In this document: positions 1-17,587 of the stretch, one piece after another
Layout: every line of letters starts with the position of its first letter
Numbering within the stretch: the stretch's first letter is position 1
From: Algoriphagus sp.
GTDB taxonomy: Bacteria > Bacteroidota > Bacteroidia > Cytophagales > Cyclobacteriaceae
Assembly (NCBI GenBank): GCA_018336015.1
Contig: JAGXQZ010000105.1
Coordinates: 62,001-126,000, forward strand
Direction of reading: 5' to 3'
DNA length: 64,000 bases
Notes under the pieces: generated by a model
What the model was told of the DNA's origin: nothing
Database searches by the model: none
What the model saw: only the letters and a program-made list of their open reading frames with translations
Program-made: the position numbers and the translations under genes

Positions 1-583
1 TGTTGGGATGAACCCCGTCAGGCAGGAGTTCGGGTTTGTCCATCAGCGGGGTGTAGAGATCGATCAGTTCCGCACCGGATTTTTGGATAATTTCCATCAG
101 CATCAGCCGCTGTTCGTTGTTCATCACCTCGGGATTGATGCCAAAGTTGACCCGGGTGACTGGCACCGGCATCACGACATAGACTTTGCCATCCTTGGGC
201 ATATGTGCACGAAACTCCGCGATTAGATCAAGGTAGTCTTTCACAAAATCGGCTTTATGGGCCCAGTTTTGAGGTTTGGAATCGTTGGTGCCGAGCTTGA
301 TGATGACCACATCGGGTTGGAAATCCTTGACCTGCTGGAATTGGGGCTCGTTCCAATAAGGATAGTCTCCTTTTTTGAGCAGGGTACGACCGCTGACGCC
401 GAAGTTTTTGACTTCATAGGAATCCCCGAGTAGGGCGGCTACCTGAAGAGGATAGGAATCGGGATTGTCCCTACCGGGGCCTTGGGTGATGCTGTTGCCG
501 ACGAAGGCTACTTTGATGGGGCTTTGGGAAAAAGCGGAAAAGCTGGCGAAAAGCGCCAAGAATAGGAGGGAGAGTTTATGCAT
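1..583 (-). CDS. SGNH/GDSL-family esterase, partial (3' end outside window)
   Basis: The first 194 residues are visible; the gene runs off the left edge. A Sec signal peptide (residues 1-20, ending AFSQ) is followed by the SGNH-hydrolase blocks. Block I is GNSIT with nucleophile Ser31, block III is GTND at 98-101, and block V is DGVHP with the catalytic Asp189 and His192. The family deacylates sugars or lipids; the secreted form suggests a carbohydrate or sialate acetylesterase, but the substrate cannot be read from the sequence. The start is the ATG whose complement lies at 581-583, directly before the hydrophobic signal. The upstream region carries only repeats. Confidence 0.88.
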   Translation of the reverse strand, partial: MHKLSLLFLALFASFSAFSQSPIKVAFVGNSITQGPGRDNPDSYPLQVAALLGDSYEVKNFGVSGRTLLKKGDYPYWNEPQFQQVKDFQPDVVIIKLGTNDSKPQNWAHKADFVKDYLDLIAEFRAHMPKDGKVYVVMPVPVTRVNFGINPEVMNNEQRLMLMEIIQKSGAELIDLYTPLMDKPELLPDGVHPN

Positions 584-1040
584 GGTTTTTTGGGGTTTGG
601 GTATGGAAATTGGTGATTTTTTACCACAAAGGCCACCAAGGAAGATGGAGAATTAGACATTTCTTGAACTTCAATCCTTTATCCTTTTAACTACCATTTT
701 AAAGGTCTCAGAGGGAAAGCTAAAGCTTTTTTATTCACCGTAGGGACGCAGAGGGCGCAAAGGATTTTTAACCACGAAGGTCACGAAGGACATGGGAGGG
801 CACGAAGGATTTTTTGGCCACAAAGTGAAATGAATAGGACCCCAAGGGTTAGTTAACTACCGAGCTCACTGAGAAAAGCTAAAGCTTTTTTGATTCACCT
901 CGAAGGCGCAGAGAACGCGGAGATTTTTTACCAAAGGAAAAAGGAAATCTTGTAAGTGGTCACAGATGCACAGATATAAAAGATTTATCTGTGAATCTGT
1001 GGCAATCTCGATCTTTAAAATTTCCAGTGTAATTTCGTCC
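584..1040. repeat. Intergenic region of degenerate repeats
   Basis: There is no credible gene here. The region is built of recurring short words such as CACAAAGGCCACCAAGG, CGAAGGTCACGAAGG and GACGCAGAGGGCGCAAAGG. It also holds two near-identical copies of a block starting AAAGCTAAAGCTTTTTT and ending ATTCACC, at about 716-739 and 875-899. Similar text reappears near 9720 and 42510. Words like CACAGATGCACAGAT run up to 1000, which is why the longer upstream start of the next gene is not preferred. Confidence 0.6.
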
Positions 1041-1871
1041 ATGAGCTTTTTACAAAGGACATTTCAATACCTTTCTTGGCTATCGCTTGACGTGGTGGTC
1101 GGGGCGATGGCGGGGATGTATTTTTTTATGGATCTATTTCATGTGCATTTGAAATGGCCCGCTTTTGCCTTGCTTGGATTGGCTGTGTGGAGTATCTATA
1201 CGCTTGATCACTTGATCGATGTGCAAACTGTACGGACTGAATTAGTCCCTAGAAGGGAATTTCACCGAAAATTCAGAAAAGCGCTTTGTGGCCTGTTGAT
1301 TTTGGTAGTTTTGATTGGCTTGGTTGGTGCGTTTACTTGGTTTGGATGGGGAAAAGAGCTTCAGCTTACCTTGATTCTGGCCCTGCTGATATTGGGAAGC
1401 CGGGTGATGATCCGCAAAATTGGTCCTGGATGGATGAAAGAATTTTCGATTGCTGTCTTCTATGTGGTAGGCATTGTTTGGCTGCCCATCCTGCGGGCTG
1501 AGGCAATCGATATTACCAAGAGTTCCCTGCTTTTTTTGCCGGGCTATATCCTGTTGGCATTTTTGAATCTGCTGATGTTATCCTTTTTGGATCGGGATGA
1601 AGATGCGAAGTCGGGCTTTTTTTCAGTGGCAAGCACGCTTCCTACCCAAAAAATCATCCAACTCATCCGTCAAGTCGCCTTTGGGTTGATTTTCCTTTCT
1701 TTGGCAGGATTTATCTTTTTACCCTCTTTTTATCGGCCATTTTCTTGTGTGGTAGTACTGATGGCTTTGGTTCATTATGTGAGCTTTTTCCAAAGTGGTT
1801 TACCGCTTCATCAGAAAAGGCAACGAATGGAACTCGCATTTTCAATTCCTTGGCTTTTGATGCTGCTCTGA
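1041..1871 (+). CDS. UbiA-like polytopic membrane protein
   Basis: A 276-residue protein with about seven to eight hydrophobic segments. Two acidic loop motifs, TLDHLID (Asp56, Asp60) and FLDRDED later, resemble the paired Asp-rich prenyl-diphosphate motifs of UbiA prenyltransferases, but the first is a reduced form of the usual NDxxDxxxD. The polar substrate is unknown; membrane location is clear. I chose ATG 1041 because the in-frame upstream stretch from 966 is repeat text and not hydrophobic protein. The gene stands alone; the next gene converges from the other strand 12 bp away. Function remains an inference from fold-like motifs. Confidence 0.6.
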   Translation: MSFLQRTFQYLSWLSLDVVVGAMAGMYFFMDLFHVHLKWPAFALLGLAVWSIYTLDHLIDVQTVRTELVPRREFHRKFRKALCGLLILVVLIGLVGAFTWFGWGKELQLTLILALLILGSRVMIRKIGPGWMKEFSIAVFYVVGIVWLPILRAEAIDITKSSLLFLPGYILLAFLNLLMLSFLDRDEDAKSGFFSVASTLPTQKIIQLIRQVAFGLIFLSLAGFIFLPSFYRPFSCVVVLMALVHYVSFFQSGLPLHQKRQRMELAFSIPWLLMLL

Positions 1872-11134: not shown

Positions 11135-13021
11135 ATGCAGGAAAAAGGCACGATCTCGATCCATACCGAGAACATTTTCCCGATTATCAAGAAATTCCTC
11201 TATTCCGACCATGAGATTTTCCTTCGGGAACTCGTCTCCAATGCAGTAGACGCTACGCAGAAAATCAAAAGACTGGCTACCCTAGGTCAGTACACCGGCG
11301 AACTCGGTGACATTACCGTGGAGGTGGCTTTTGACGAGAAAAAGAAGACCATCACCATCTCTGACAAAGGCCTTGGAATGACCGCCGAAGAGATCAAAAA
11401 GTACATCAATCAGATTGCATTCTCCGGCGCAACCGAGTTTGTGGAGAAATTCAAAGATGCCAAAGATGCCAATGAGATCATCGGTAAGTTTGGCTTGGGT
11501 TTCTACTCCGCCTTCATGGTGGCCAAAAACGTGGAAATCCACACCCTTTCCTATCAGGACGGCGCAGAACCGGCCATCTGGACTTGTGACGGCAGTACCG
11601 AATTTGAAATCAAAAAAGGAAAGAAGAAAGAACGAGGTACTGACATTATTCTTCATATCAACGAGGATTCTGAAGAATTCCTCGACAAATGGAAGCTGCA
11701 AGGCATCCTGGATAAATACTGCAAGTTCCTCCCTGTGCCGATCAAGTTTGGAACCAAATCCGAGTCTGTGGAGGATGGAGTCGATGACAAGGGCGATAAA
11801 AAGTGGAAGTCTATCGAGGTAGACAACATCATCAACACCACTTCTCCGATTTGGACCAAGTCTCCAAGCGACCTAAAGGACGAAGACTACCTGGCTTTCT
11901 ACAAGAGCCTGTATCCGATGGGGGAGGATCCGCTTTTCTGGATTCACCTCAATGTGGACTATCCGTTCAACCTGACCGGAGTGCTGTATTTCCCCAAGGT
12001 CAAAAACGAATTCGAGCTTCAGCGTAATAAGATCAAGCTTTTCAGCCGTCAGGTATTCATTACCGATGAGGTGAAAGACATCGTGCCGGAATTTTTGATG
12101 CTGCTTCACGGGGTGATTGATTCTCCGGACATTCCGCTCAACGTATCCCGAAGCTTCCTGCAGGCCGATGGCAACGTGAAGAAAATCAACAACTACATCA
12201 CCAAAAAAGTAGCCGACAAGCTGTCCGAACTTTTCAAAAAGGATCGCAAAGCCTACGAGGAAAAGTGGAACGACATCGGACTGTTTGTAAAGTACGGCAT
12301 GATCTCCGAGGAGAAATTCTACGAAAAAGGCAAGGAATTCACCCTGCTCAAAAACACCAAAAACGAATATTTCACGCTGGATGAATACCGTGAAAAGGTG
12401 AAAGCTGTGCAAACGGATAAAAACGAGCAGACCATCTTCCTCTACTCCACCGACCTCAACAAACAGGACAGCTTCATCGATTCGGCCAACAAGAAGGATT
12501 ACGATGTGCTCGTGCTTGACTCTCCGATCGACAGCCATTTTATCCAACATATCGAGACCAAGATCGAGAAGACCCAACTTAAGCGAGTGGATGCCGATGT
12601 GGTGGAAAAGCTCATCCAAAAAGACTCCACCTATGCCAATCTCCTGACCGAAGATCAGAGCAAATCCGTGAAAGAACTCTTCGAAAAGGCGATCAACAAC
12701 AAAAACTACAGCGTGGAGATCGAAGGCTTGAGTCCTGAGGAGATGCCTGTGACCATCACCATGGAAGAGTGGATGCGTCGTATGAAGGACATGGCACAGA
12801 CCGGAGGAGGACCAATGAGCTTCTACGGCAGCTTGCCGGACAGCTACAAAGTCGCCATCAACGGCAACCATCCTGTGGTGGACAAAATCCTCAAAGCCGA
12901 AGGCGAGGAAGCCCAACTGAAACTAGCCAAGCAGGCCTTTGATTTGGCCATGTTGTCTCAGGGCTTGCTAACCGGCAAAGACCTGACTGCCTTTGTGAAG
13001 CGAAGTGTAGAGATGATTTGA
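11135..13021 (+). CDS. htpG: Molecular chaperone HtpG (Hsp90)
   Basis: A 628-residue Hsp90. The GHKL ATPase domain includes FLRELVSNAVDATQKIK near residue 33, the ISDKGLGMT loop and GKFGLGFYSAFMVA. The middle domain has PLNVSRSFLQ carrying the catalytic Arg. The C-terminal dimerisation domain ends VKRSVEMI. It assists folding and stress recovery in the cytosol. A long antisense reading frame across it is a codon-bias shadow. The last 60 codons and the downstream hairpins are repeated at 15077-15385. Confidence 0.97.
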   Translation: MQEKGTISIHTENIFPIIKKFLYSDHEIFLRELVSNAVDATQKIKRLATLGQYTGELGDITVEVAFDEKKKTITISDKGLGMTAEEIKKYINQIAFSGATEFVEKFKDAKDANEIIGKFGLGFYSAFMVAKNVEIHTLSYQDGAEPAIWTCDGSTEFEIKKGKKKERGTDIILHINEDSEEFLDKWKLQGILDKYCKFLPVPIKFGTKSESVEDGVDDKGDKKWKSIEVDNIINTTSPIWTKSPSDLKDEDYLAFYKSLYPMGEDPLFWIHLNVDYPFNLTGVLYFPKVKNEFELQRNKIKLFSRQVFITDEVKDIVPEFLMLLHGVIDSPDIPLNVSRSFLQADGNVKKINNYITKKVADKLSELFKKDRKAYEEKWNDIGLFVKYGMISEEKFYEKGKEFTLLKNTKNEYFTLDEYREKVKAVQTDKNEQTIFLYSTDLNKQDSFIDSANKKDYDVLVLDSPIDSHFIQHIETKIEKTQLKRVDADVVEKLIQKDSTYANLLTEDQSKSVKELFEKAINNKNYSVEIEGLSPEEMPVTITMEEWMRRMKDMAQTGGGPMSFYGSLPDSYKVAINGNHPVVDKILKAEGEEAQLKLAKQAFDLAMLSQGLLTGKDLTAFVKRSVEMI

Positions 13022-13117
13022 TGTGAGAGACCTTTGAGGTCTCAAAGACCTCGAAGGTCTTCTTTAATTATGTAAATATTCAAACCTTCCAGGTTTAAAA
13101 AACCTCAAAGGTTTTCC
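13022..13117 (+). repeat. Tandem hairpins of the ACCTCGAAGGT family after htpG (copy 1)
   Basis: Three successive inverted repeats: GAGACCT-ttg-AGGTCTC at 13027-13043, AAGACCT-cg-AAGGTCTT at 13045-13061, and AACCTTCC...AAAGGTT at about 13083-13113. The unit recurs after the htpG fragment at 15260-15355, and a related perfect palindrome lies at 29732-29762. Confidence 0.8.
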
Positions 13118-13145
13118 AAATCCCCGGCCTTGGTCGGGGATTTTT
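13118..13145 (+). terminator. htpG intrinsic terminator
   Basis: AAATCCCCGGCC-TT-GGTCGGGGATTT stem followed by T residues, about 100 bp past the htpG stop. An almost identical terminator lies at 15356-15385. Confidence 0.88.
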
Positions 13146-13312
13146 CGTGTTTATTTCTAGGAGAAATCTAATTTTAAAAACTAAAATTTCACTATTTAGC
13201 AACATATTGTATAACAGCAAGTTGTAATTTGTATTCTACTAAGAAATTAGAAATAATTTCATTGAAAATCAACTAGTTATGATTTACTAATAAAAAATAT
13301 TCAGTTGAAGTC

Positions 13313-13340
13313 TTGACTTTTTGAAATGAGGGAGTATTTT
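13313..13340 (+). promoter_or_regulatory. Candidate promoter block of peptide cassette A
   Basis: TTGACTTTTTGAA followed by a G-rich stretch and TATTTT. The same block (TTGACTTTTTGAA, G-run, TATTTA) precedes cassette B at 15523-15552, although most of the two upstream regions has diverged. Conservation of this block suggests a shared promoter or regulator site. It looks closer to TTGACA/TATAAT than to the Bacteroidota consensus. Confidence 0.45.
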
Positions 13341-13400
13341 CAATTAAAGTTTTCGGAAATGGACGCTTTATAACAAATTGTTAACTTAAATGAATAGAAG

Positions 13401-13622
13401 ATGCTTGAAATTAAAAAAAGTGTATTTGGTATATGTGCAATCTTAGGGCTAACTACTGGAATTTGTGTAGCGCAATCTACTTGTGATACGACACCAGACC
13501 CAGGCCAAACCGTAGGAAGATGCCTTCTTGTTACTACCTCACAAGGGGATTTAGCGACCTGTAATGTCACAAATCCTGAAGGAGAAACCTGGTATTTTGG
13601 CAAGCTTGAAGTAGGGGGATGA
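13401..13622 (+). CDS. Small secreted cysteine-containing peptide A
   Basis: A 73-residue protein with a signal peptide (hydrophobic core about 8-22, likely cut after VAQ at 25). The mature chain is about 48 residues with three cysteines (28, 41, 54) and a C-terminal Gly-Gly. No family is recognised with certainty. Its position, directly before a DUF4221-type lipoprotein, matches the way NVEALA-type peptides sit beside propeller lipoproteins in Bacteroides. The stop codon overlaps an ATG in the +2 frame (ATGA), and a terminator-like hairpin follows. Base composition is AT-rich compared with htpG. Confidence 0.62.
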   Translation: MLEIKKSVFGICAILGLTTGICVAQSTCDTTPDPGQTVGRCLLVTTSQGDLATCNVTNPEGETWYFGKLEVGG

Positions 13623-13652
13623 ATTTAATTCTTATGTATTCAAATCTAATTG

Positions 13653-13681
13653 GCGGCAAGAATAATCGCGCCGCTTTTTTT
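13653..13681 (+). terminator. Terminator-like hairpin between peptide A and lipoprotein A
   Basis: GCGGC (13653-13657) pairs with GCCGC (13670-13674) and is followed by seven T residues, just before the lipoprotein ATG at 13688. It may attenuate read-through, giving more peptide than lipoprotein. Cassette B has an equivalent at 15901-15937 with unrelated bases. Confidence 0.55.
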
Positions 13682-13687
13682 ACTCTT

Positions 13688-14839
13688 ATGAAAAGTCTTT
13701 TCAAGATTATTTTATTACTTTTATTCAGTTGCAAAGTTGATTCCGGGGATGATAAATCCGAGATATTTAGGGTTCTAGGTTATAAATTTGGTGATGATTT
13801 TGTTCTTGGGATAGATGATGAAACAAATATTTTTAATTATCTAAGTGTTCCTGTAAATTTAGGAAATGAAAGTAAACTCTTTTTTTTTAGTGAAATTTCT
13901 AATACCCTTAACATTTATGATGTCGCAAATGGGACACTTGATAAAAAATTAAAATATCCCATTCAAGGTCCTAATTCAATATTTGGTATTGGATTTAATT
14001 CAGGATTTGTAATCGCGAATTATGATTCAATAATTTATTATAGTCGATTGATGGAAAGGGTGTATATATCAAATTCAGAAGGTGATATATATAAATCATT
14101 AAATTTAAGCAATGATTCAAATAGTTTCGGATCTATTGACTTAACTTCCCCAATGGCATATCGAGATAAATCAATTTATTTACAAAGTTTGCCTAAAATA
14201 TCTGCCTATTCGTCTTCAGACTCTATCAAAGTATTAAATGAAATATCAAAAATAAATTTGGAAACTGGCTTAGTAACAAAACTCCAAATTCAAAGCCCTG
14301 CGATTTATTTTTCTGGAAATTTTTCTTACCAATTGAAAATGCTTGACTTTGTATATAATCCAAAAATAGACAAATTTATATTTAGCTATCCACTGTCTGA
14401 TTCTTTATATGTTGTAGACTTTGAAGGTTACTCAAAGGCTTACCTTGCTAAAAGTAATTTGGTGTCTGATTTTATCGAAACAGATTTTCAAAATAAGATT
14501 GTATCCAAATCAAAATTAACAAATTATTATTTTTGGATAAATGATTCTTATGGTAAATTAATTTACGATCCTATTAATGATATTTATTTAAGGGAAGCGA
14601 GGAAAGGGATCACAGAAGAAAATTTTCTGGCAAGAAAGTTAAAGACAAAAAAGGAGGTTTTGATTTTGAATAACAAGTTTAAGAAAATTGGGACTATTCC
14701 TCATAATGGCGGTGACTTTATTTATTATTTTTTTAAAAAAAATAGAATCTATTGGAACAAGGATCTTGTTGAGTTTAATTTAGAGGCAAGTCAAGAAGAT
14801 TCTATATTTTTTGACTCGATTGAGATAGAATTTAATTGA
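13688..14839 (+). CDS. DUF4221-like beta-propeller lipoprotein A
   Basis: A 383-residue lipoprotein: MKSLFKIILLLLFSC ends in a lipobox with Cys near 15. The rest is a string of short beta-rich repeats with the QGPNSIFG motif near 95, a counterpart of NGPNAVND in the cassette B protein. It resembles DUF4221 / six-bladed propeller lipoproteins, which have no established role. The start at 13688 is chosen for the signal sequence; an in-frame ATG at 13619 overlaps the peptide stop and adds a hairpin-encoding stretch. Codon use is strikingly AT-rich (many AAT, ATA, TTA), unlike htpG and cassette B, which suggests separate acquisition. Confidence 0.68.
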   Translation: MKSLFKIILLLLFSCKVDSGDDKSEIFRVLGYKFGDDFVLGIDDETNIFNYLSVPVNLGNESKLFFFSEISNTLNIYDVANGTLDKKLKYPIQGPNSIFGIGFNSGFVIANYDSIIYYSRLMERVYISNSEGDIYKSLNLSNDSNSFGSIDLTSPMAYRDKSIYLQSLPKISAYSSSDSIKVLNEISKINLETGLVTKLQIQSPAIYFSGNFSYQLKMLDFVYNPKIDKFIFSYPLSDSLYVVDFEGYSKAYLAKSNLVSDFIETDFQNKIVSKSKLTNYYFWINDSYGKLIYDPINDIYLREARKGITEENFLARKLKTKKEVLILNNKFKKIGTIPHNGGDFIYYFFKKNRIYWNKDLVEFNLEASQEDSIFFDSIEIEFN

Positions 14840-14949
14840 GTTCCCTACACTTGTAAGCCTGTATTTACCTTTTTTTTCCATTTGAGGTGGTGCTTTTATT
14901 CTCTCCTCCAAACTTGTTTAATTCCCAAAATTTAGCATTTATAGCCAAG
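14840..14949. other. Spacer between lipoprotein A and the rrf2 fragment
   Basis: No gene and no clear terminator. Text such as CCTTTTTTTTCC and ATTCTCTCCTCC leads into the decayed rrf2 5' end at about 14950. Confidence 0.5.
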
Positions 14950-15060
14950 CCTTTCTCAAAAGACCAACTACGGCTGCATGCCTGCACCTCCCTCTGTAAG
15001 AATCGGGAACATAAGACGGTTTTGATTCAGGAATTTGCCGAGGAGCAGGTGGTTAATAAA
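14950..15060 (+). pseudogene. Decayed 5' fragment of an Rrf2-family regulator gene
   Basis: About 110 bp align with the start of the intact Rrf2 gene at 17171. Shared blocks include AAAAGACCAA, CTGCATGCC, CGGGAA and CTGATTCAGGA (here TTGATTCAGGA). In one frame it reads CKNREHKTVLIQEFAEEQ against GKHRENKTVLIQDIAEEH. By eye the best 50 bp are near 80 percent identical. Small indels break the frame before this block, and homology stops where the htpG fragment begins. Confidence 0.8.
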
Positions 15061-15076
15061 TACTGAGAAAATATTT

Positions 15077-15259
15077 GACAGTTACAAAGTCGCCATCAAC
15101 GGTAACCATCCCGTGGTGGACAAAATCCTCAAAGCGGAAGGGGAAGAGGCCCAGTTGAAACTAGCCAAGCAAGCATTTGATTTGGCCTTGCTTTCTCAGG
15201 GCTTGCTGACCGGCAAGGACCTGACAGCCTTTGTAAAGCGAAGTGTGGAGATGATTTGA
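15077..15259 (+). pseudogene. Duplicated 3' end of htpG (last 60 codons)
   Basis: The sequence encodes the terminal 60 residues of HtpG, from DSYKVAINGN to VKRSVEMI, with one amino-acid change (Met to Leu). I count 19 nucleotide differences from 12839-13021, of which 18 are silent. Such silent-only divergence implies the copy evolved as part of a working htpG before being stranded here, perhaps in another strain. Homology begins abruptly at 15077 and continues through the downstream hairpins and terminator. A reading frame starting at 15035 is a by-product. Confidence 0.92.
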
Positions 15260-15385
15260 TGTGAGAGACCTTTGAGGTCTCAAAGACCTCGAAGGTCTTC
15301 TTTAATTATGTAAATATTCAAACCTTCGAGGTTCCCAAAACCTCAAAGGTTTTCCAAATCCCCGGCCTTGGTCGGGGATTTTTTT
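15260..15385 (+). repeat. Copy 2 of the htpG downstream hairpins and terminator
   Basis: Near-identical to 13022-13145, with only about five substitutions, fewer per base than in the adjoining coding fragment. It includes the terminator AAATCCCCGGCC-TT-GGTCGGGGATTT at 15356-15381. Confidence 0.92.
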
Positions 15386-15522
15386 ATATGAAACATAGAA
15401 AAATTTGATTTAACGATCTGAATTATAGATTTATAAGTAAACTTTATAAATCTCAAAAATGAATTTTTCAGCCTGAAAATCAATTAGTTAAAAACCATTT
15501 TAATTTCTCTTTAGCTTTACAC

Positions 15523-15552
15523 TTGACTTTTTGAATTTGGGGGGCATATTTA
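15523..15552 (+). promoter_or_regulatory. Candidate promoter block of peptide cassette B
   Basis: TTGACTTTTTGAA, a G-run and TATTTA, matching the block before cassette A at 13313-13340. It lies about 63 bp before the peptide B start. Confidence 0.45.
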
Positions 15553-15614
15553 GTTCAAGTTCAATGCGCTGCGAGCTTTTTAATAAGTATTTTAACTTCA
15601 ATCATCTTTATATT

Positions 15615-15884
15615 ATGAAAAAGAAAACTCTCTATTTAGCATCCTTCTGTATTATTTCTTTTGCTTTTAGTTTAATTCTAAATTTAATTTCGGAAAAAGG
15701 ATCTAATCTTAATTCTTTATTTAGTCAAGTTTATGCTCAAGATGAAGAGCTAGAAGAATCTGGGTCAGGTAAAACTGATTGGTATTATTTTGACTGTCCA
15801 TATAACACTGGAAAATATTGTAGTTCTGTTCAGAGTTCAGAATCTTGTGGAAAATCAAAGAAAAAACCAATTGGAAATTGTTAA
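15615..15884 (+). CDS. Small secreted cysteine-rich peptide B (NVEALA-like)
   Basis: An 89-residue protein. The N-terminal MKKKTLYLASFC...SLILNL is a signal/leader hydrophobic segment, followed by SNLNSLFSQVYAQDEE. That stretch is reminiscent of the leader end of NVEALA-family peptides (a Leu-rich stretch then xVxAxA). The C-terminal part has four cysteines (61, 69, 78, 89) in an aromatic and Lys/Ser-rich tail. Export and disulphide formation are likely; function is unknown. It is the counterpart of peptide A, with little sequence identity between them, so the pair may have diversified or come from different sources. Confidence 0.66.
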   Translation: MKKKTLYLASFCIISFAFSLILNLISEKGSNLNSLFSQVYAQDEELEESGSGKTDWYYFDCPYNTGKYCSSVQSSESCGKSKKKPIGNC

Positions 15885-15900
15885 TAATTTAAGTTAAAGA

Positions 15901-15937
15901 ACTCAACTCTGCCTAAGGGGTTGAGTCTTTTCCTTTT
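15901..15937 (+). terminator. Terminator-like hairpin between peptide B and lipoprotein B
   Basis: ACTCAAC (15901-15907) pairs with GTTGAGT (15920-15926), followed by CTTTTCCTTTT, 19 bp before the lipoprotein ATG. It has the same position relative to the genes as the hairpin in cassette A. Confidence 0.6.
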
Positions 15938-15955
15938 AAAACAGTTTTATTCCTA

Positions 15956-17089
15956 ATGAATCGAATTCTTCCCTTAATCTTCGTAATTGTTTTTATTTTT
16001 TCTTGTTCTCAGCCAAATTCCAATGACAGAAAAGTGGATTTTTTTGTTGATCCAAAATTCATTTCCACGGGAAATTCCCTAGCCCAGTTTTACCTTTTCA
16101 ACCAAGTCCGAAATGATTCATTGTTTCTGTACAATTCATTTAATCACTCCCTTGATCTCGTTGATTTAAAATCAGATTCGGTAGTAAATCGGATAAAGTT
16201 TGAATTGAATGGCCCCAATGCGGTAAATGACATCAGCTCCTTTTATTTTCATAATCGGGACTCCATTTTTCTATCAGAGGAAAATTTTTCTGTTGCTCTG
16301 GTTAACTCCAAAGGTGAATTGAAAAACAGATACACTGATTTCCTGTCAAGCTTTCCTACAGAGGAAAAAGAGAAACTCTATTCCAATAGCCCTTCCTTGG
16401 GGTTTGCTTCCCAGATGCTGTATGATCCTTCTCAAAAGGAAATACTACTCTACTTCATGCCCTTCAATCAGGCGGAACAGAAGCGGATCTTTGCTGCCTA
16501 TTCTTTGGAGAGCGGAAAATCCAAATCCCTGCCGATTCACCTGCCTGACCAGTATTTGGATAAAAAATTGGATCTGAGCAAGTTGTTTTTGACTTCAGGC
16601 ACAGTGGATAAATCTGGCTTTACTTACCTCTTTTCCGGTAGTCCGTTTGTTTTCCGATATGATTTTCATACTAAGAAAGTAGCATCATTTGAAGCTAATC
16701 CTCCTTGGGAAAAGGTAAAGGCGGATGATATTCCTTTTGGTTCCATGAGTTCAGAGCAAAAACAGGACTTTATGAAGGAGAATCCATTTTACTATAAAAT
16801 CTACTTTGACCCCTATCGAAATCTGTACTACCGACTGAGTAGCCCACCAAGGCCAAATGCCACAGAGCCGGACTTTCATTATGTCAATTACAACACCATT
16901 TGTGTTACTGTATTGGACAAAGAGCTTCAGGTATTGGATCATCTTTTTCTCCCTAAAGAAAATGTGTACAATGTTGGATTCTCCTTTGTGACTTCAGAAG
17001 GGCTTTGGATCAGCTACAATGGAGGAAATCAAGATGATGAAAACTGGATCAAAGGAGATTTGATCAAATTCGATAACGTGACGAATTGA
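15956..17089 (+). CDS. DUF4221-family beta-propeller lipoprotein B
   Basis: A 377-residue lipoprotein with signal MNRILPLIFVIVFIFSC (lipobox FSC, Cys 17). Repeats of short strands carry NGPNAVND near 80, SVALVNSKGEL and a C-terminal WISYNGGN. The layout and length fit DUF4221, a family of predicted propellers on the cell surface or periplasmic face with unknown role. Codon use is closer to the flanking chromosome than that of lipoprotein A. The two share the signal, the GPN motif and overall length, so they are paralogues or xenologues. Confidence 0.78.
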   Translation: MNRILPLIFVIVFIFSCSQPNSNDRKVDFFVDPKFISTGNSLAQFYLFNQVRNDSLFLYNSFNHSLDLVDLKSDSVVNRIKFELNGPNAVNDISSFYFHNRDSIFLSEENFSVALVNSKGELKNRYTDFLSSFPTEEKEKLYSNSPSLGFASQMLYDPSQKEILLYFMPFNQAEQKRIFAAYSLESGKSKSLPIHLPDQYLDKKLDLSKLFLTSGTVDKSGFTYLFSGSPFVFRYDFHTKKVASFEANPPWEKVKADDIPFGSMSSEQKQDFMKENPFYYKIYFDPYRNLYYRLSSPPRPNATEPDFHYVNYNTICVTVLDKELQVLDHLFLPKENVYNVGFSFVTSEGLWISYNGGNQDDENWIKGDLIKFDNVTN

Positions 17090-17170
17090 TTTGAATACTG
17101 CTAAACCCTCCGAAGGTTTATCTCCCCACTCCCGTACTAGGCTATTCCGATTTTTCGGTTATTTTTGATC

Positions 17171-17587
17171 ATGCTTTCCAAAAAGACCAAGTACGCCCTG
17201 CATGCCCTGACTTACCTCGGTAAGCATCGGGAAAACAAGACCGTCCTGATTCAGGACATCGCCGAAGAACATGGCATTTCGCATAAGTTTCTCGAAAATA
17301 TCCTCCTCGAACTCCGAAAGGCCGGCTACCTCGGCAGCAAAAAGGGCAAAGGCGGTGGCTACTACCTGATCAAAGAACCCAAAGACATCCCACTTTCCCG
17401 AGTGATTCGACTCCTAGACGGGCCTATTGCCCTACTTCCCTGCGTCAGTCTCAACTACTACGAACCCTGCGCCGAGTGCAAGGATGAGTCCCACTGTGGC
17501 ATCAATCGGGTCATGGCTCAAGTCCGGGATGAAACGCTTAAAATACTGGAAAATAAGACCTTGCAGGATATATTGGAGCGGGAATAA
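17171..17587 (+). CDS. Rrf2-family transcriptional regulator
   Basis: A 138-residue protein with the Rrf2 winged helix (KKTKYALHALTYLG, HGISHKFLENILLELRKAGYL, KGKGGGYYL wing). A C-terminal cysteine motif PCVSLNYYEPCAEC...CG could hold a cluster or sense thiols. ATG 17171 is preferred over the upstream TTG at 17165. Its place directly before cysH suggests control of sulfate assimilation, like CymR in Firmicutes. The palindromes at 17605-17623 and 21224-21233 are candidate operators. A diverged fragment of a second copy lies at 14950-15060. Confidence 0.9.
   Translation: MLSKKTKYALHALTYLGKHRENKTVLIQDIAEEHGISHKFLENILLELRKAGYLGSKKGKGGGYYLIKEPKDIPLSRVIRLLDGPIALLPCVSLNYYEPCAECKDESHCGINRVMAQVRDETLKILENKTLQDILERE

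What the first reader, a model, noticed from the sequence alone, without database searches (positions are those of the whole stretch)
12839..17587. Duplicated or imported htpG-rrf2 interval: two peptide/lipoprotein cassettes separated by gene scraps
The order is htpG, hairpins+terminator, cassette A, rrf2 5' scrap (14950-15060), htpG 3' scrap (15077-15259), hairpins+terminator, cassette B, intact rrf2. The simplest reading is that two homologous htpG-cassette-rrf2 intervals were joined head to tail. The htpG scrap differs from the intact gene by 19 bases in 60 codons, 18 of them silent. It therefore diverged as part of a working gene, more likely imported from a related strain than decaying in place.
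Basis: partly seen in the sequence, partly recalled or inferred. Interest (0 to 1): 0.72.

Follow-up and report, generated by a model that had tools for sequence, protein, structure and literature searches.

The report
Swappable two-gene cassettes behind htpG
Behind the heat-shock gene htpG, Algoriphagus bacteria keep a site where small two-gene cassettes (an exported peptide or lipoprotein plus a partner protein) are repeatedly swapped in, leaving scraps of the neighbouring genes behind, much as competing bacteria stack up toxin and immunity genes.

Summary
In detail: cassette A, an rrf2 5' scrap, an htpG 3' scrap and cassette B lie between intact htpG and rrf2. The "head-to-tail import" reading is only partly right. 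Of 37 Algoriphagus loci that show both genes, the gap is under 400 bp in 15 and 0.5-9.6 kb in 22; 18 of those 22 hold cassettes behind a shared ~70-nt promoter/leader. The window's rrf2'|htpG' junction recurs with the same breakpoints in Algoriphagus sp. AK58, probably in a third species, so it is old; its two halves differ in age. In four locus pairs the cassette is more alike between species (85-92%) than the genes around it (67-78%); in others it is not. Broken cassettes keep the second gene: 7 second-gene orphans, no first-gene orphan, and the last unit seen in all five arrays holding other cassettes. Best reading: one-sided, homology-anchored insertion of foreign cassettes that behave like effector-immunity modules, as in Vibrio type VI arrays. 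Toxin and immunity roles are inference; no toxin family matched in the proteins scanned. I found no report of this site in the library searched.

The parts
11135..13021 (+). htpG, intact; its 3' end is the upstream anchor of the hotspot
   Evidence: HtpG NF003555; compared in 48 genomes
13022..13150 (+). hairpins and terminator, block A; close to identical to block B, unlike the relatives' copies aligned
13306..13386 (+). conserved promoter/leader A (degenerate)
   Evidence: model R1 E 8.9e-10; it is one of the 27 sequences the model was built from
13401..13622 (+). cassette A gene 1: 73-aa peptide with signal-peptide-like start (by eye); no Pfam or NCBIfam match
13688..14839 (+). cassette A gene 2: 383-aa lipoprotein, DUF4221
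   Evidence: PF13970 E 1.2e-17
14950..15074 (+). rrf2 5' scrap, decayed
15077..15259 (+). htpG 3' scrap, 60 codons, open frame
15260..15384 (+). hairpins and terminator, block B
15516..15596 (+). conserved promoter/leader B
   Evidence: model R1 E 1.2e-14; also one of the model's own sequences
15615..15884 (+). cassette B gene 1: 89-aa peptide with signal-peptide-like start (by eye)
   Evidence: relatives in L075, L115
15956..17089 (+). cassette B gene 2: 377-aa lipoprotein, DUF4221
   Evidence: PF13970 E 4.8e-23; 84% relative without peptide or leader hit in G037
17171..17587 (+). rrf2, intact; downstream border of the hotspot
   Evidence: PF02082 E 3.3e-39

Best explanation
The htpG-rrf2 gap is an insertion hotspot for mobile two-gene cassettes: a shared promoter/leader, then gene 1 (an exported peptide or a lipoprotein), then gene 2 (a beta-propeller lipoprotein or a membrane protein). 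Foreign DNA pairs with the 3' end of htpG and the conserved stretch behind it, and its other end joins by chance elsewhere (homology-facilitated illegitimate recombination). The new cassette comes to lie next to htpG; the displaced htpG tail and older cassette move downstream, and a piece of the donor's rrf2 may remain at the join. That yields htpG-A-rrf2'-htpG'-B-rrf2 in one step; later ordinary recombination refreshes or replaces parts. The cassettes most likely work as exported effector plus cognate protector (immunity). Shown here: hotspot, shared leader, exchange of some cassettes between species and loci, orphan pattern. Inferred: route of insertion, effector and immunity roles.
For: Hotspot: 15 of 37 gaps under 400 bp, 22 of 37 from 548 to 9567 bp, 18 of the 22 with a leader match. 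Scraps: htpG tails in 8 of 27 stretches over 300 bp searched (two of the 8 only 36-39 nt), rrf2 starts in 4 of 27; G007 has another junction, at an 8-nt word shared by rrf2 and htpG (by eye). Leader: 63 hits in 31 of 72 genus genomes; in 55 of 64 leader hits a first gene starts at once behind it (corrected by hand). Exchange, in 4 of the 27 locus pairs printed: L113/L122 cassette 92% against 68-76% for the genes around; L113/L114 89 against 72-76; L118/L113 85 against 72-78; L121/L114 86 against 67-77. One family in three neighbourhoods of two host genes (htpG-rrf2, htpG-metK, bshA locus); in 5 of 5 pairs over 80% its alignments between loci end 1-11 nt behind the gene 2 stop. Pairing: 12 of 14 gene 1 families with two or more partnered members have one gene 2 family. 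Orphans: 7 second genes, 0 first genes; last unit seen in 5 of 5 arrays with other units. G003: two loci share leader and about 31 codons of gene 1, then differ in the rest and in gene 2. A second site in this genome, leuB, has leuB-tail copies on both sides of a cassette. The route is modelled on Kirchberger 2017 (PMC5361080, section 13 read).
Against: No toxin or immunity family over cut-off in the first genes scanned, of which there were few: 15 peptides and 2 class ii lipoproteins in Pfam, fewer in NCBIfam. The htpG tail is not more discordant with the rest of the gene than other htpG windows, which a frequently replaced tail would lead one to expect. In the four fresh scraps neither copy is clearly native. 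At the bshA locus the host gene's coding tail is not duplicated. The orphan counts are small and were made by hand; short orphan peptides are easier to miss than long second genes; in L114, L122 and L124 the stretch seen ends soon after the orphan. Same-family pairs share descent, so the pairing is not a set of independent tests. Other locus pairs show no excess: L117/L133 93% throughout, L124/L050 82 against 81, L065/L057 69 against 74. For this window, cassette B is 88% to G037 (core 89-90) and 69% to G050 (core 82), so no recent transfer of its own cassettes is shown.
Confidence: 0.55

Rival explanations
1. One reading: one recent event joined two homologous intervals head to tail, one of them imported.
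For: Tandem topology; clean htpG scrap at between-species divergence.
Against: Same junction in G037 and probably G053; rrf2' and htpG' of unequal age, and the reverse in G037.
Confidence: 0.15
2. Plain tandem duplication within a lineage by short-homology slippage, followed by divergence and conversion; no import needed for the scraps.
For: The junction is what a tandem duplication gives; G007 shows an 8-nt shared word (by eye); terminator blocks A and B are far more alike than the relatives' copies, so copies in one genome do seem to convert.
Against: The cassettes on either side are unlike (peptides in different families at E 1e-4; lipoproteins 23% identical) and change between close relatives; the fresh scraps in G000, G007 and G003 are 9-13% from the own gene.
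Confidence: 0.15
3. Functional rival: gene 1 is a signal or ligand and gene 2 its surface receptor or export partner (recognition or signalling, not toxin and immunity).
For: Signal-peptide-like, mostly cysteine-bearing peptides (by eye); propeller lipoproteins are plausible binders; consistent pairing; receptor-only remnants would also be tolerated.
Against: Does not by itself predict that orphans are only second genes and distal, nor a second cassette class with CPBP or small membrane partners behind the same leader.
Confidence: 0.3
4. A site-specific mobile element whose recombinase acts in trans inserts behind genes.
For: Cassettes sit just behind htpG and leuB with their terminators; the empty site is compact.
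Against: No recombinase seen inside the two-gene units read (by eye); scrap breakpoints vary. Transposase-like frames do lie behind a cassette in L127 and in the gap of L048 (by eye; not searched).
Confidence: 0.08
5. Assembly artefact.
For: Some relatives' contigs end in this gap.
Against: Copies differ by about 10%; junction shared with another genome.
Confidence: 0.01

Closest known systems
Type VI effector-immunity arrays of Vibrio cholerae (Kirchberger 2017, PMC5361080; passages and section 13 read)
   Same: Two-gene modules exchanged between strains, older second genes kept downstream without their first gene, remnants of displaced genes, anchored one-sided insertion proposed.
   Different: No type VI genes seen in the cassettes; gene 1 has its own signal-peptide-like or lipoprotein-like start; cassettes have a private promoter/leader and several loci.
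SitA/SitI lipoprotein toxins of myxobacteria (PMC5562445, passages read)
   Same: Class ii: lipoprotein with shared N-terminus and variable rest, with its own partner gene next to it.
   Different: No toxin domain in the two class ii lipoproteins scanned; partners are membrane proteins (CPBP or small); no delivery system shown.
Bacteroidetocins (PMC6671954, only the start of the abstract in a search listing seen)
   Same: Small peptides of Bacteroidetes that act on relatives.
   Different: [quoted passage not shown] the peptides scanned here match no family over cut-off.
Pfam propeller families DUF4221 / DUF5128 / TolB_like
   Same: Many gene 2 proteins of class i match these profiles.
   Different: Pfam describes fold or 'unknown function' only; no paper in the library for DUF4221, nor for DUF5128, DUF4934 or PF17170.

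Membership tests
Effector-immunity module arrays (type VI / CDI / Rhs kind) | Specific two-gene pairing | tested here: met
   12 of 14 gene 1 families with two or more partnered members have one gene 2 family; the two exceptions are class ii families; a further family had only one partner in sight (one misassigned gene corrected by hand)
Effector-immunity module arrays (type VI / CDI / Rhs kind) | Orphan immunity genes kept downstream | tested here: met
   7 second-gene orphans, 0 first-gene orphans; 5 of 5 the last unit seen in arrays with other units (counted by hand, small numbers)
Effector-immunity module arrays (type VI / CDI / Rhs kind) | Horizontal exchange of modules | tested here: met
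   Cassette identity above that of the genes around it in 4 of 27 locus pairs printed; several other pairs show no excess, the window's own cassettes among them
Effector-immunity module arrays (type VI / CDI / Rhs kind) | Recognisable toxin domain or delivery carrier in gene 1 | tested here: not met
   No match over cut-off in 15 peptides and 2 class ii lipoproteins scanned against Pfam; NCBIfam only for some of them
Effector-immunity module arrays (type VI / CDI / Rhs kind) | Toxicity and protection | not testable with these tools
   needs the bench
NVEALA peptides (PF14055; name and accession recalled) | Match to the Pfam profile | tested here: not met
   No match for the two window peptides nor for ten peptides of relatives at E up to 1
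DUF4221 (PF13970) | Profile match over the gathering score | tested here: met
   64.9 and 82.7 bits, cut-off 23.4
DUF4221 (PF13970) | Six-bladed propeller fold (assumed from related families; not stated by the Pfam entry) | tested here: inconclusive
   Model of lipoprotein B has mean pLDDT 42; not used

The most novel reading that the evidence does not exclude
A new class of interbacterial competition genes in Bacteroidota: exported cysteine-bearing peptides or lipoproteins with beta-propeller lipoproteins or membrane proteins as their immunity partners, driven by one shared leader that also serves as the recombination anchor for moving cassettes between htpG, bshA, leuB and other loci and between species.
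Probability: 0.35. Interest if true: 0.82.

Novelty: new variant of a known kind. Interest (0 to 1): 0.62.

Why it matters
It gives a testable function for propeller lipoprotein families (DUF4221, DUF5128, TolB_like) for which I found none described, offers a leader motif with which such cassettes can be looked for in Algoriphagus-like genomes, and shows a natural site where foreign gene pairs are stacked behind a housekeeping gene with the scars of insertion still readable.

Tried and rejected
Considered and rejected: assembly error (shared junction, divergent copies); unique recent fusion (junction shared); tail replacement inside htpG as a general effect (the tail is not more discordant than other windows); host-tail duplication at every locus (not found at the bshA locus); NVEALA membership. 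A tree of htpG tails (53 rows; 5 of the 10 scraps left out as too short or decayed) left the window scrap unresolved among its nearest rows.

Led nowhere: structure models of peptide B (mean pLDDT 61, single sequence) and lipoprotein B (42, three sequences) were too poor to search with; a search of solved structures with a glycine-rich peptide of another genus gave nothing with E below 0.24; paper searches for NVEALA and DUF4221 gave no paper, those for propeller names nothing on point in the listings; ComEC is present but was found in 10 of 14 control genomes and decides nothing. The leader hairpin, whose 8 pairs I named after seeing the alignment, has only modest support: 84.6% of cells paired; 2, 2 and 5 of 500 shuffles reach paired cells, doubly changed cells and covariation score, but 56 and 184 of 500 reach the two counts of pairs and types. 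Script error found on checking: the first gene of L058's first leader was taken as a short chance frame; the real one (+189 nt) belongs with family 10. In the same call a lone second gene (L051) was entered as a first gene. Both are corrected in my counts.
Full report
What is there. The repeat 12839-13138 / 15077-15376 is 300 nt at 92%. The htpG scrap has identity 0.896 over 183 nt to the own gene, 19 differences, with one residue changed. The rrf2 scrap is 78% identical to the own rrf2 over 98 nt and, by eye, reaches about 15074, so the two scraps meet within 2-3 nt.

Survey of the genus. A protein match to rrf2 was found in 59 of 72 genomes (in 8 of them only near 57% identity). I fetched the surroundings of 40, mostly the best matches on longer contigs, and added the window. 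In 37 of these 41 loci htpG and rrf2 are both in the stretch; in 4 they are not (L048, L052 and L061 end with their contig, L045 has htpG elsewhere). In 15 of 37 the gap is under 400 bp (101-313), in 22 of 37 it is 548 to 9567 bp. Of those 22, 18 hold at least one leader match; G070 has a lone second gene, G005 a peptide and lipoprotein without a leader hit, and G026 and G068 other genes. Near relatives differ freely: G030 (core htpG 90%) has an empty 114-bp gap and G004 (91%) two other cassettes. Further loci were fetched later because they had a leader or lay near rrf2 and are not in these counts; in G021 rrf2 has no htpG beside it (L136).

The cassettes. Each begins with a conserved element: a TTGAC-like box, a run of G, TATGTTTAG, then a short inverted repeat around GCGC (27 aligned copies; model R1). 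It resembles a Bacteroidota promoter (motif recalled). The hairpin has modest support only. Of 64 leader hits, the script put a gene start directly behind 57. Checking by hand, 55 are first genes; one of the 57 is a lone second gene (L051) and in one the real first gene starts 189 nt on (L058). Of the other 7, two are cut by a contig end (L120, L125), L074's second has gene 2 only, and four have a later or unclear start. Class i: gene 1 is a peptide of about 55-101 aa with a signal-peptide-like start (by eye), gene 2 a lipoprotein that matches DUF4221, DUF5128 or TolB_like in many but not all cases scanned. Class ii: gene 1 is a lipoprotein of about 186-285 aa, gene 2 a CPBP-type membrane protein (Rce1-like PF02517, one scanned) or a small membrane protein. 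CPBP proteins are tied to bacteriocin self-immunity in some Gram-positives (recalled; listing only). No peptide scanned gave a Pfam match over cut-off.

Exchange. In 4 of the 27 locus pairs printed the cassette is more alike than the genes around it: L113/L122, 92% against 68-76%; L113/L114, 89% against 72-76%; L118/L113, 85% against 72-78%; L121/L114, 86% against 67-77% (the neighbouring glycosyltransferase I call bshA from recall). L113/L129 is 84% over cassette plus the gene behind it, against 73-76% upstream. Not so elsewhere: L117/L133 93% throughout; L125/L057 91.5 against 88.6; L124/L050 82 against 81; L065/L057 69 against 74; and for this window lipoprotein B to rrf2 is 87.7% to G037 (core 89-90%) and 69% to G050 (core 82%), as descent would give. 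One family (gene 1 family 1) is found at htpG-rrf2 (L058, L056), htpG-metK (L128) and the bshA locus (L113, L122). In 5 of 5 of its pairs over 80% between loci the alignment ends 1-11 nt behind the gene 2 stop; in other families the ends scatter from -120 to +138 nt. In G003 two loci share leader and about the first 31 codons of gene 1 and then part, with different second genes.

Scraps. htpG tails were found in 8 of 27 stretches over 300 bp searched (in L069 and L071 only 36-39 nt), rrf2 starts in 4 of 27: window, G037, G053, G007. The window and G037 junctions align without gaps over 46 nt (by eye); two variants, present in 1 of 48 and 2 of 48 intact htpG tails, are in these two scraps and in none of the other eight. 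G053 fits with a 2-nt gap but is decayed. G007 has its own junction at an 8-nt word common to rrf2 and htpG (by eye). So the window's junction predates this species or was passed on with its surroundings. In the window rrf2' is old and htpG' fresh; in G037 rrf2' is 94% and htpG' 73% identical to its own genes, the latter nearest to G019 (0.870). Four of ten scraps are fresh (window, G007 first, G003 first and third): 9-13% from the own gene, but about as near to neighbouring species as the intact tail is (means 0.861/0.885, 0.848/0.829, 0.882/0.884, 0.868/0.860 for scrap/intact). They are alleles from the wider pool, but which copy is native cannot be told. The tree leaves the window scrap unresolved within a supported group of 26 rows.

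A second site in this genome. Behind leuB (contig C28) a further cassette has the same upstream stretch (72% over about 250 nt), a weak leader match (E 0.0125), a 71-aa peptide and a 362-aa lipoprotein. Copies of the leuB tail lie before it (66 nt, 73%, E 2e-4) and behind it (109 nt, 72%, E 1e-12). At the bshA locus stretches behind the host gene are repeated but its coding tail is not.

How it works, most likely. I propose one-sided insertion: incoming DNA pairs with htpG and the stretch behind it, and its far end joins without homology, for example donor rrf2 to the recipient's htpG tail. One such step gives the window's order. The model follows Kirchberger et al. 2017 (PMC5361080, section 13 read). 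It predicts that older units lie far from htpG. The orphan second genes agree: G037 lipoprotein B, G014 second unit, G016 and G024 CPBP, G019 TolB-like, each the last unit seen in an array with other units (in G024 the contig, in G016 and G019 the fetched stretch, ends soon after); G022 and G070 stand alone. Two further scraps of second-gene ends were seen (L122, and L135 at a contig end). No first-gene orphan was found; single first genes occurred only where a contig ends (L052, L126). If the five were placed at random in arrays of 2 or 3 units the chance is about 1 in 72 (my arithmetic). Pairing: 12 of 14 gene 1 families with two or more partnered members have one gene 2 family, the exceptions being class ii. 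This is what effector-immunity modules show; no toxin was identified, so a signal-receptor pair remains possible.

Against it. The htpG tail is not more discordant than other windows of htpG (rho 0.775, other windows 0.410-0.816), so frequent tail replacement from far away is not shown. Counts are small; orphan calls were made by hand; short peptides are harder to find; few first genes were scanned. Transposase-like frames lie behind a cassette in L127 and in the gap of L048 (by eye), so another route of movement is not excluded.

Spread. In the family the leader was found in 10 of 196 genomes and 4 of 76 genera. In two genomes of one other genus it lies behind htpG with a peptide and lipoprotein (L140, L142); in another genus near rrf2 (L144) with a 155-aa protein, a glycine-rich 108-aa peptide and a 94-aa membrane protein. 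The peptide looks bacteriocin-like by eye; neither it nor its neighbours match a family over cut-off, the 94-aa protein being below cut-off to Colicin V production (22.5 of 29.3 bits).

Literature. Searches for NVEALA and DUF4221 gave no paper; Algoriphagus with htpG one, not on point by its listing; DUF5128, DUF4934 and PF17170 none, BF3164 one table entry. Other searches, seen as listings. Within that library and these searches I found no account of these cassettes or this site.

Noticed in passing
L144 (another genus of the family), 403-1509, minus strand: Behind the leader and near rrf2: a 155-aa lipoprotein-like protein, a 108-aa very glycine-rich peptide (bacteriocin-like by eye) and a 94-aa membrane protein; no family match over cut-off.
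   Followed up: partly
L130 / G000 contig C28, about 31.0-33.9 kb of that contig: Further cassette behind leuB in the window's own genome, with leuB tail copies on both sides.
   Followed up: partly
L045 and L124 (G019, contig C72): htpG with its cassette and rrf2 lie about 31 kb apart on opposite strands of one contig, as if a rearrangement had its breakpoint in the hotspot.
   Followed up: no
L117 (G018) and L128 (G035): htpG with its cassette is followed by a metK-like gene (by eye) instead of rrf2.
   Followed up: no
window 13077-13115 and 15318-15358: Hairpin segments that match other places of the genome at 86-94% over about 30-43 nt, as repeated extragenic palindromes do.
   Followed up: no
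L133 3646-3926 and L117 1643-2012: Tandem-like direct repeats upstream of htpG in G016 and G018.
   Followed up: no
L127 6066-6983 (oriented) and L048: Transposase-like frames next to a cassette and in the hotspot gap, recognised by eye only.
   Followed up: no
L048, L052, L061, L115, L120, L135: Contigs of relatives end inside or beside these arrays, as repeated framework sequences could cause.
   Followed up: no
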